This document shows, piece after piece, positions 1,582-3,704 of a DNA stretch of 64,000 nt. Numbering within the stretch: position 1 is the first letter of the stretch; each line of letters opens with the position of its first letter. The notes under the pieces were generated by a model. That model worked only from the letters and a program-made list of their open reading frames with translations. It had not been told where the DNA came from and did not search any database. The translations under genes were made by a program, and so were the position numbers. Where the stretch lies: positions 248,001-312,000 of the forward strand of contig NZ_LR215050.1 in the NCBI RefSeq assembly GCF_900660755.1, given 5' to 3'. This stretch comes from Acholeplasma hippikon. Lineage in GTDB: Bacteria; Bacillota_I; Bacilli_A; Acholeplasmatales; Acholeplasmataceae.

Positions 1582-1615
1582 AAAGAAGGCATATCAAAGC
1601 TTACTTTTAATTAGC

Positions 1616-1657
1616 CAACTATTAGATGAATGTCAAGTGTTTAACAAATAATAGTTG
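1616..1657. repeat. 9-bp inverted repeat in the right end of the IS110 element
   Basis: CAACTATTA (1616-1624) and TAATAGTTG (1649-1657) form a perfect inverted repeat with a 24-bp gap. The gap contains the candidate -35 box TTGACA (minus strand 1636-1631). The outer arm includes AGTTGG, which abuts the proposed CT core and recurs in the candidate donor-guide strand of the bridge RNA. Confidence 0.6.
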
Positions 1658-1730
1658 AAATGATAAAAAGACATGCTAAAACAGATGTCCATGAAACACC
1701 TTATTTTAAATCTTTGATAATTAAATACGG

Positions 1731-2912
1731 TTAATGAGAAACAGTATATACACTATTGTTCTTTAAAATGGAACGAATAACTCTAAGGAGCTTCTTAGTA
1801 ACGTGGCCAATAATTGTTAGGTAATGCTTTCCTTCAGATTTTTTCTTCTCATAGTAAGCGTTAAAAACGGGGTCATGAATAACCGCTACCTTAGCAGCTT
1901 GAAAGATGGCCCATCTCAAAATAGATGATCCACGCTTTGATATCTTAAAGCTGCCTTCATAATTACCGGATTGATAAACAGATGGATCAAGACCGGCATA
2001 TGCTAGTAAGGCATCATCTGATTTAAAACGATTGATATCACCAATTTCGGCTAAGATGATAGCACCGGTCTGAGTACCAATGCCGGGAATACTTAAAAGG
2101 GTGGTTTTAGATTCAGTGATATGGTGTTCTAACAATTGATTAATTTGGTCAATCTGACTTTCAATAGTTCTAATGGTTTGGACAGATTGTTTGATGGATA
2201 GTGATAAAGATGCACTATCTATACCAATTGAATCTTTAACTAATGTTTTAATGAGTTCAACTTTTGCTAAACCATGTCTACCTTTAGAAGATTTCTTAAG
2301 AAGTTCAGATAACGTATTTACTCTAACGCGTTTTAGTTCTGATAATGAAGCATACGACGATAAAAGTGTTAATGGGGCGTTAGATAAGATATTCTTGAAT
2401 ACGGTATGATATTCAGGGAAAGCCTGATCTAAGAATGCGTGAAGTTGATTAGTTATTTGATTTAATTGTTTTTTTAAAGATTTTCTTTGTCTAACAAGTA
2501 TTTTGAGTTCATCAATATGATATGATGATAGTGTATAGGGTTTGAAATCGTTTTGGTTTCGAATGAGAAACATACAAATGGCCTTGGCGTCTATAGAGTC
2601 AGTCTTCGTTTTACGAACTGAGGAAGCCTTTCGGTCCATATTGGTTAATAATGGATTAATAAACATTACATCGTATCCCTCGAGGATTAAGAAGTATAAG
2701 ATATTTCTAGAGTAATGTCCAGTAGATTCAAGCCCTATACGCACATTAGAATCTTTGAAGAACTCTTTGGCCAATGAAATTTGCTCAAGGAGTTTTTTAT
2801 AGCCTTGACGTGTATTATCGATTGTAAAGTGTTTATTAAATACTTCACCTAATGCATTCATAATGAAGATGTCATGTTTATTTGAGGCGACATCAATACC
2901 TACTAGAATCAT
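1731..2912 (-). CDS. IS110-family transposase (DEDD recombinase)
   Basis: A 393-residue recombinase. Seen: an N-terminal RuvC-like DEDD domain with D7 (GIDVAS), E62 (LESTGHYS), D105 and D108 (KTDSIDAK). A coiled middle section (about 130-265) follows, then the C-terminal Transposase_20 domain (LLSIPGIGTQTGA, about 272-284) with the YQSG motif whose Ser315 aligns with the IS110 catalytic serine. All catalytic positions are present, so the protein should be active. Known: IS110 enzymes recombine DNA at a core dinucleotide guided by an RNA made from the element's non-coding end. Here that end lies upstream of the gene, as in the IS110 rather than the IS1111 group. The ATG follows AAAGGCAGGG. Confidence 0.95.
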   Translation of the reverse strand: MILVGIDVASNKHDIFIMNALGEVFNKHFTIDNTRQGYKKLLEQISLAKEFFKDSNVRIGLESTGHYSRNILYFLILEGYDVMFINPLLTNMDRKASSVRKTKTDSIDAKAICMFLIRNQNDFKPYTLSSYHIDELKILVRQRKSLKKQLNQITNQLHAFLDQAFPEYHTVFKNILSNAPLTLLSSYASLSELKRVRVNTLSELLKKSSKGRHGLAKVELIKTLVKDSIGIDSASLSLSIKQSVQTIRTIESQIDQINQLLEHHITESKTTLLSIPGIGTQTGAIILAEIGDINRFKSDDALLAYAGLDPSVYQSGNYEGSFKISKRGSSILRWAIFQAAKVAVIHDPVFNAYYEKKKSEGKHYLTIIGHVTKKLLRVIRSILKNNSVYTVSH

Positions 2913-2949
2913 AAGATCCCTGCCTTTCTTTGATGAACACGAAGCTTAG

Positions 2950-3108
2950 CGCTGCAGACTTTAATGAATGTAACCTAATTAGAAATAACCAGTCATAAAA
3001 TGCTGTATCCAACTCATAACCATATTTAATTAAAGTCACAGATATATCCTATTTTAACCAGTCGTAAACGCTGTAGGGAGAATATAAACTAGTCTGTGAT
3101 ATCATCAT
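2950..3108 (-). ncRNA. candidate IS110 bridge RNA (two guide lobes)
   Basis: Between the left end and the transposase ATG the minus strand can fold as two stem-loops. Lobe 1: closing stem TCACAGA (3099-3093) with TCTGTGA (3042-3036). Lobe 2: closing stem GACTTTAAT (3037-3029) with ATTAAAGTC (2965-2957); the two stems share two bases. Both lobes carry nearly the same segment (3075-3055 and 3007-2986) that folds as CAGCG-TTTA-CG-A-CTG in lobe 1 and CAGCAT-TTT-ATG-A-CTG in lobe 2, so a G:C pair is replaced by A:T. The flanking strands, where guides would sit, differ. The start is set from the junction-promoter TATAAT (3120-3115) and the 3' end is approximate. Length is close to known bridge RNAs. 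Confidence 0.75.
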
Positions 3109-3149
3109 AAGTTTATTATAGTGGACAATCACTTATAAATAAAAAAATA

Positions 3150-3171
3150 ACATGTAAATTGTCTTACATGT
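3150..3171 (+). promoter_or_regulatory. 8-bp inverted repeat upstream of the isochorismatase-like gene
   Basis: ACATGTAA (3150-3157) and TTACATGT (3164-3171) form a perfect inverted repeat with a 6-base spacer, 8 bases before the AGGAG ribosome site (3179-3183). It could be an operator or a leader hairpin. It lies outside the proposed IS110 boundary. Confidence 0.45.
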
Positions 3172-3188
3172 ATATATTAGGAGAATAT

Positions 3189-3704
3189 ATGAGAGCTTTA
3201 ATAGTAATTGATGTCCAAAAAGGATTGATCGATTTAAAAAAAGAAACAAAAATTATTGATAAAATTAATGAATTAATCAAAAAGTTTAGAGAAAATAATG
3301 ACAAAATTATTTTTGTTAGACACTGTAGTGAGCATAAAGAAGATTTCTTTAATAAAGAGAATGAAGGATCTAAAATTTCTGAAATGTTAGATTATCAAAA
3401 TGAGTTTGTTGTAGAAAAATATACACCGAGTGCATTCTTTCAAACAACACTAACATCATATTTAAAAGATAATCAAATTGATGAACTATATGTTACTGGC
3501 TTTAATAGTGAATATTGTATTGCATTTACATCAATTGCTGCCTATGATAGAGGATACAAAGTTAAAATTGTAGAAGATGCAATTGATACTGTAAATAAAG
3601 GTAAAATTTATGGTTATAAATCATTAGATATTACTGATTTTTTACTTACTGTAATTCATAATTCAAATGTAATTGAACTTGTTGAAACTGAAAATGTAAA
3701 TTAG
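3189..3704 (+). CDS. isochorismatase-family cysteine hydrolase
   Basis: A 171-residue cytoplasmic hydrolase of the isochorismatase/nicotinamidase superfamily. Seen: the catalytic triad D8 (VIDVQKG), K77 (VEKYTPSAF) and C110 (GFNSEYC) in the usual order and spacing, and the DRGYKVKIVEDA strand after the cysteine. The start is the ATG at 3189, placed after AGGAG (3179-3183); an in-frame TTG ten codons upstream has no ribosome site. Family members cleave amide or vinyl-ether bonds, for example in nicotinamide; the substrate here is not readable from sequence. The gene stands alone next to the left end of the IS110 element. Confidence 0.85.
   Translation: MRALIVIDVQKGLIDLKKETKIIDKINELIKKFRENNDKIIFVRHCSEHKEDFFNKENEGSKISEMLDYQNEFVVEKYTPSAFFQTTLTSYLKDNQIDELYVTGFNSEYCIAFTSIAAYDRGYKVKIVEDAIDTVNKGKIYGYKSLDITDFLLTVIHNSNVIELVETENVN

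What the first reader, a model, noticed from the sequence alone, without database searches (positions are those of the whole stretch)
2945..3121. Two-lobed bridge-RNA candidate upstream of the IS110 transposase, with covarying hairpins
Seen: the minus strand folds into two consecutive stem-loops with closing stems of 7 bp (3099-3093/3042-3036) and 9 bp (3037-3029/2965-2957). Each contains nearly the same internal segment (3075-3055; 3007-2986), whose hairpin differs by a compensatory G:C to A:T change, while the flanking guide positions differ. Established: IS621 and other IS110 elements use a bridge RNA with target- and donor-binding loops. Inference: lobe 1 is the target lobe and lobe 2 the donor lobe. 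In lobe 2, AGTTGG (plus strand 3009-3014 as CCAACT) equals the last six bases of the right end before the CT core (plus strand 1615-1620). In lobe 1, TTAAAATAG (plus strand 3049-3057) fits 7 of 9 positions of the strand complementary to the right target. This would be a bridge RNA in a mollicute.
Basis: partly seen in the sequence, partly recalled or inferred. Interest (0 to 1): 0.9.

Follow-up and report, generated by a model that had tools for sequence, protein, structure and literature searches.

The report
RNA-guided jumping gene targeting ribosome-binding sites
This Acholeplasma jumping gene (an IS110-type insertion sequence) carries a guide RNA whose structure and pairing with DNA are conserved across many relatives, and the RNA appears to steer the element into the start-of-translation signal of host genes.

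Summary
The finding holds. The element is a single-copy IS110-group insertion sequence: left end 2913-3178, tnp 1731-2912, right end 1613-1730, all minus strand, core CT. Its left end encodes a two-loop bridge RNA (2959-3102). Folding this one sequence shows nothing (z -0.54); comparison shows a lot. In 35 related elements all 28 base pairs of the two-loop model show compensatory changes, and 95.9% of cells pair. A structure-blind alignment gives 20 of 28 pairs and 95.6%. The model's hits sit just upstream of IS110 transposases in 39 of 392 genomes sampled from the phylum, all in the window's class.

The guide assignments also hold. Right-donor guide plus core predicts the element's own end exactly in 34 of 35 elements (8 different 4-mers, including core CA with guide TG). 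Target guides match their own flanks beyond all 20,000 permutations on both sides. The window's insertion site is the best of 6,256 CT sites in the window.

An ATG lies 6-14 nt from the junction in 31 of 34 insertions (20% expected), with Shine-Dalgarno sequence spanning the insertion point. This parallels IS900, long known to target such signals. It is a new member of a known kind. Expression and activity are untested.

The parts
1731..2912 (-). IS110-family DEDD recombinase, 393 aa, intact; catalytic D7, E62, D105, D108, S315
   Evidence: PF01548 E 5.5e-39 and PF02371 E 1.4e-28; phmmer to IS621 8wt6 E 5.1e-23 with DEDD and Ser aligned; residue positions
2913..3178 (-). left non-coding end (LE, 266 nt); first base at 3178
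   Evidence: border from alignment of 8 loci in different genomic sites
1613..1730 (-). right non-coding end (RE, 118 nt), ending in core CT (plus strand 1614-1613)
   Evidence: alignment of 8 loci
2959..3102 (-). bridge RNA, two-loop part (144 nt)
   Evidence: covariance model R1 166 bits E 1.9e-30 (a training sequence, so by construction); independent support from 27 other elements
3036..3099 (-). target-binding loop (lobe 1), closing stem 3099-3093/3042-3036
3078..3086 (-). [quoted passage not shown] core-position bases CC at 3077-3076 (flank has CT)
3049..3055 (-). right target guide AAAATAG (core AG at 3050-3049); 3 of the first 5 right-target bases match, plus both core bases
2959..3035 (-). 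donor-binding loop (lobe 2), closing stem CUUUAAU/AUUAAAG
3009..3014 (-). left donor guide AGTTGG, identical to RE bases plus 1615-1620
2975..2979 (-). right donor guide ATTAG, complementary to core plus LE start CTAAT
3115..3120 (-). conserved internal TATAAT (-10 box) 18 nt before lobe 1: probable bridge-RNA promoter
   Evidence: 27 of 35 elements have TATAAT within 30 nt 5' of lobe 1, nearly all 11-19 nt; about 3.8 expected
1631..1636 (-). -35-like TTGACA; in the excised circle 17 nt from TAATAT formed across the RE-core-LE junction
   Evidence: sequence
3179..3183 (+). target site: Shine-Dalgarno AGGAG of the flanking gene; AG (3179-3180) is the core
   Evidence: sequence
3189..3704 (+). 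target gene, isochorismatase-like reading frame with ATG at 3189, divergent from the transposase
   Evidence: family name inferred from sequence, not searched

Best explanation
The element is an IS110-group insertion sequence with a bridge RNA encoded in its left end on the minus strand. Lobe 1 reads the target on both strands: the left guide equals the top strand left of the core, and the right guide is complementary to the top strand right of the core. Lobe 2 reads the element's own joined ends in the same way. The DEDD/serine recombinase would use both loops to bring the excised circle and the target together at the CT core and exchange strands. The target guides of this element and its relatives are written to recognise translation-initiation signals (Shine-Dalgarno sequence, with the start codon at fixed distance), so insertions land at the ribosome-binding site of a gene running away from the transposase. 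Shown here: the RNA structure by covariation, pairing to donor and target by covariation, the core, element borders in the close family, the empty sites of two relatives, and the target class. Inferred: that the RNA is made, binds the recombinase and directs recombination, as proved for IS621.
For: Structure: 28 of 28 pairs with changes on both sides, 95.9% of cells paired versus 74.2% shuffled and at most 41% slid; structure-blind alignment 20 of 28, 95.6% versus 82.1%. Donor: right-donor guide plus core predicts the LE end in 34 of 35 elements, 138 of 140 letters, none of 20,000 permutations reach it (best 111), including core CT to CA with guide AG to TG. Left-donor guide variants AGTTGG, AGTTAG, AGTAGG, AGCTGG, AGATGG and AGCTAG recur at the matching right ends. 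Target: left guide 145 matches versus 103.4 permuted, right guide 65 versus 39.6, 0 of 20,000 each; the window's own site ranks first of 6,256 CT sites. Ribosome-binding site: ATG 6-14 nt from the junction in 31 of 34, background 0.20, p 7e-19; Shine-Dalgarno substring mean 6.4 nt versus 3.3. Empty sites without duplication for two relatives. Catalytic residues.
Against: Single-sequence folding is no better than shuffles. The window copy mismatches the core at one guide base (CC for CT), has lost one lobe-1 stem pair, and only 3 of the first 5 right-target bases match. Permutation tests do not remove relatedness between elements. Left-donor ends were picked partly by their match to the guide, so that comparison is weaker than the right-donor one. 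No empty site could be found for the window's own insertion. No RNA or transposition data.
Confidence: 0.94

Rival explanations
1. The left end is structured DNA (recombinase-binding repeats), not RNA: the two similar lobes are duplicated protein-binding sites, and target choice is made by the protein.
For: The two lobes contain nearly the same internal segment. Ribosome-binding-site targeting is shared across elements with different guides.
Against: Compensatory changes in all helices, G-U pairs included. The guide bases change together with the element ends, even the core CT to CA, and with the target flanks. Homologous RNAs in IS621 and ISEc21 are proved (PMC11208160, PMC11187229).
Confidence: 0.03
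2. A real bridge RNA, but in this copy a decayed relic: changes in lobe 1 (core CC, lost stem pair) make it unable to direct new insertions.
For: Six substitutions and one indel in lobe 1 against one substitution in the remaining 198 nt of LE relative to the A. equifetale copy (p 0.0004). Single copy in the genome. Lower model score than the A. equifetale and G014 copies (166 versus 177-179 bits).
Against: The changed left guide fits its own site 9 of 9, which looks like retargeting rather than decay. The recombinase is intact. Other copies, such as G367 and L066, also read CC at the core position.
Confidence: 0.2
3. The RNA serves to regulate transposase expression (leader or attenuator), with guide-like matches a by-product.
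For: It lies directly upstream of the transposase gene, and the 5' part of LE in many relatives holds hairpins and anti-Shine-Dalgarno tracts.
Against: Does not explain covariation with both element ends and with target flanks.
Confidence: 0.03

Closest known systems
IS621 (IS110 group, Escherichia coli) and its bridge RNA (PMC11208160, PMC11208158)
   Same: DEDD plus serine recombinase; RNA in the long left end; target loop then donor loop; left guide identical to the top strand, right guide complementary to it; CT core; one-base linker after the target guide and A-U linker after the donor guide; bulged A in the lobe hairpins; junction promoter
   Different: Larger recombinase (393 against 326 aa); the left donor guide stops before the core; a conserved TATAAT inside LE suggests an RNA that starts at lobe 1 without the 5' stem-loop; targets are translation-initiation signals, not REP elements
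IS900 of Mycobacterium avium subsp. paratuberculosis (PMC8141618; Doran et al. 1997, known to me by title from its reference list)
   Same: IS110 family; target CATGNNNNNNTCTCCTT, start codon and Shine-Dalgarno complement in the same order as here
   Different: Actinobacterial; the papers I could read do not assign its target choice to an RNA; its guides were not examined here
ISEc21 and its seekRNA (PMC11187229)
   Same: IS110 type, non-coding region upstream of tnp, RNA with matches to both strands of the target, circle with promoter across the joined ends
   Different: Target is a conserved stretch inside certain IS3-family transposase genes

Membership tests
IS110 family, IS110 group | DEDD (PF01548) and Tnp (PF02371) domains with catalytic D, E, D, D and S | tested here: met
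IS110 family, IS110 group | Long non-coding region on the left (upstream of tnp), shorter right end, no long subterminal inverted repeats as in IS1111 | tested here: met
   LE 266 nt, RE 118 nt; absence of long inverted repeats was judged by reading the ends, not by a separate search
IS110 family, IS110 group | Insertion without target duplication at a short shared core | tested here: met
   two relatives aligned to empty sites with a single CT; for the window itself inferred from aligned copies, no empty site found
Bridge RNA | Two consecutive stem-loops with internal loops, conserved by covariation | tested here: met
Bridge RNA | Loop 2 guides pair with both strands of the joined element ends | tested here: met
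   right guide 34 of 35 exact; left guide 6 of 6 in the window and matching variants elsewhere
Bridge RNA | Loop 1 guides pair with both strands of the target | tested here: met
   permutation tests, rank test
Bridge RNA | Promoter reconstituted across the circle junction | tested here: inconclusive
   TTGACA-17-TAATAT by sequence; activity unknown
Bridge RNA | 5' stem-loop ahead of the two loops | tested here: inconclusive
   inverted repeat ACATGTAA/TTACATGT at 3171-3164/3157-3150 with one compensatory change in L003; the internal TATAAT may start the RNA after it
Bridge RNA | RNA expressed and bound by the recombinase; guides direct recombination | not testable with these tools
   needs experiment

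The most novel reading that the evidence does not exclude
A broad clade of IS110 elements in the window's class (Bacilli), from Acholeplasma to Enterococcus and Leuconostoc, has settled on bridge-RNA guides that imitate the anti-Shine-Dalgarno end of 16S rRNA (and, in some, the complement of the start codon). They therefore read the one signal that every host offers at thousands of genes, and insert between promoter and start codon while leaving the Shine-Dalgarno sequence on the gene. The same logic would explain the translation-initiation targeting of IS900.
Probability: 0.65. Interest if true: 0.65.

Novelty: new member of a known kind. Interest (0 to 1): 0.55.

Why it matters
It extends proved bridge-RNA biology to mollicutes and close relatives with strong guide-DNA covariation, including natural change of the core dinucleotide together with its guides. 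It offers a concrete RNA explanation for why some IS110 elements, IS900 among them, sit at ribosome-binding sites. The clade supplies many naturally varied guide, target and core combinations, useful for learning the pairing rules. The internal promoter and the donor guide that stops short of the core are testable differences from IS621.

Tried and rejected
Rfam search found nothing relevant. Single-sequence folding is uninformative. RNAalifold on the seven nearly identical close copies gave a different, poorly supported fold; only more distant relatives settle the structure. The single protein scan of genome contigs found only two loci, so the genome search was used instead. Laying out the whole genome was not possible. 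No empty site for the window insertion was found, because the target gene has no close homologue in the 8 genomes of the genus held. I considered whether the guides of each copy are rewritten to match their own insertion: the window fits (9 of 9), but the A. equifetale copy fits its site poorly (4 of 7 left, 2 of 6 right) and the G014 and G137 copies show no such rule, so I dropped it. I found no paper in the library linking bridge RNAs with Shine-Dalgarno targets or describing IS110 elements of Acholeplasma; the four papers holding both IS110 and Mollicutes are not about this. The library lacks most subscription journals.

Full report
What is there. Window 1613-3178 (minus strand) is a complete IS110-group element. 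Borders were set by aligning eight loci from five genomes that share the element in different surroundings: the window, three copies in G014 (87% protein identity), two in G021 (68%), one in L003 (71%) and one, with a deleted transposase, in Acholeplasma equifetale. The left end begins with AATATATA after a CT core; the right end closes with AGTTGG and a CT core. It is the only copy in its genome. The 393-aa protein has both IS110 domains and aligns with IS621 over the DEDD residues and the catalytic serine.

The RNA. A covariance model of the close family found further copies in held loci and in 16 of 395 genomes of the class. The hits lie directly upstream of an IS110 reading frame wherever the contig and the gene are intact; the exceptions are truncated contigs, broken genes and one orphan copy. 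A second model from 35 members hit 39 of 392 genomes sampled from the phylum, all within the window's class, and 21 of 88 of the family. On the 35-member alignment all 28 pairs have changes on both sides and 95.9% of cells pair; sliding the partner by one to three columns drops this to 22-41%. That alignment was fitted to the model, so I repeated the count on a plain MAFFT alignment of 18 members: 20 of 28 pairs compensated, 95.6% paired against 82.1% shuffled, no shuffle as good. A third set of 22 further matches (18 distinct), including Enterococcus, Leuconostoc, Lactococcus and Monoglobus elements, gives 25 of 28.

Anatomy compared with IS621. In the published structure the target guide is followed by a one-base U linker and the donor guide by an A-U linker, a G-U linker follows the lobe hairpin, and each lobe hairpin has a flipped-out A (PMC11208158). 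All recur here: CTCCT-U-ACAGC, AGUUGG-AU-ACAGC, CUG-GU, and the bulged A in CAGC...GACUG. The donor guide pairs with the six bases before the core but not with the core C, a difference from IS621.

Guides and DNA. For each of 35 elements I read the guides from fixed alignment columns and the element end from the conserved TATAAT-like left end. The complement of the right donor guide plus core equals the observed core and first two LE bases in 34 of 35 cases, with eight different 4-mers; permutation never came near (138 against a best of 111 of 140). Five elements have core CA, and all five carry TG instead of AG in the guide. Left donor guides differ between groups (AGTTGG, AGTTAG, AGTAGG, AGCTGG, AGATGG, AGCTAG), and the same hexamers stand at the right ends; the ends were partly chosen by this match, so I give it less weight. 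Target side: own matches exceed permuted pairings at left positions -1 to -4 and right positions +1 to +3 (145 against 103.4, 65 against 39.6, 0 of 20,000 each). The window's reconstructed site scores 10 of 12 and is the only CT site of 6,256 in the window to do so.

Targets are ribosome-binding sites. On the strand opposite to the transposase the left flank reads AGGAG-N5-ATG in the window and similar in the others; an ATG lies 6-14 nt from the junction in 31 of 34 insertions against 20% of CT sites (p 7e-19). The reconstructed sites hold on average 6.4 nt of perfect Shine-Dalgarno complement, background 3.3. In the G023 copies the left guide itself contains CAT and the right guide GGAGGAG. 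For two relatives on plasmids the uninterrupted site exists in other records and shows a single CT and no duplication. The IS900 target CATGNNNNNNTCTCCTT (PMC8141618) has the same order, and a 1997 title in that paper's reference list states that IS900 targets translation-initiation signals. So the target class is not new; its link to bridge-RNA guides is what I add, and I found no paper in the library making it.

Expression, inferred. The circle would place TTGACA (1636-1631) 17 nt from TAATAT across the joined ends, as in other IS110 elements. In addition 27 of 35 elements have TATAAT shortly before lobe 1 (about 3.8 expected), at 3120-3115 in the window, so the RNA may start at lobe 1 from the integrated element. 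No clear -35 box precedes it.

Fast guides. Compared with the A. equifetale copy, lobe 1 of the window carries six substitutions and one indel in 68 nt, against one in the other 198 nt of LE. This fits retargeting, as natural reprogramming has been reported for IS1111 elements (PMC11187229), but it may include decay: the guide has CC at the core and one stem pair is lost.

Limits. Relatedness is not modelled in the permutation tests. No RNA or activity data exist here. The taxonomic claim rests on the held genomes, sampled evenly, and on a few plasmid records.

Noticed in passing
L109 (NZ_OY725734.1), 1-1563: A 1,563-bp circular 'plasmid' record of Monoglobus pectinilyticus is an IS110 element with its ends joined (bridge RNA at 68-202). 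The junction reads AGTTAGTCT-CACCT-CGTATAAT, with five extra bases, so it is either a real circle with a target remnant or a tandem-copy assembly artefact.
   Followed up: partly
LE of about half of the 35 elements, for example L057, L058, L051, L055, upstream of lobe 1: A 6-9 nt copy of the anti-Shine-Dalgarno sequence (CTCCTTTCT) lies inside LE about 35-55 nt from the border (34-82 over all elements), often right after a hairpin; absent in the window copy. It could sequester the transposase ribosome-binding site in read-through RNA, or be an attenuator.
   Followed up: partly
L090 (G137:C1:2942360-2942499): An orphan bridge RNA with an intact left end but only a 34-codon open frame behind it: a deleted copy that could be mobilised in trans.
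   Followed up: no
L110: An Enterococcus faecium IS110 element (37% identity) sits at the start of the sat4 resistance gene between sat4 and aad(6); the first codon fits a GTG start after a Shine-Dalgarno-like AGGCGGG. Its RNA was not detected by model R2.
   Followed up: partly
window 3150-3171 (arms 3164-3171 and 3150-3157): Perfect 8-bp inverted repeat followed by a T run just inside the left end: a 5' stem-loop or weak terminator ahead of the bridge RNA.
   Followed up: partly
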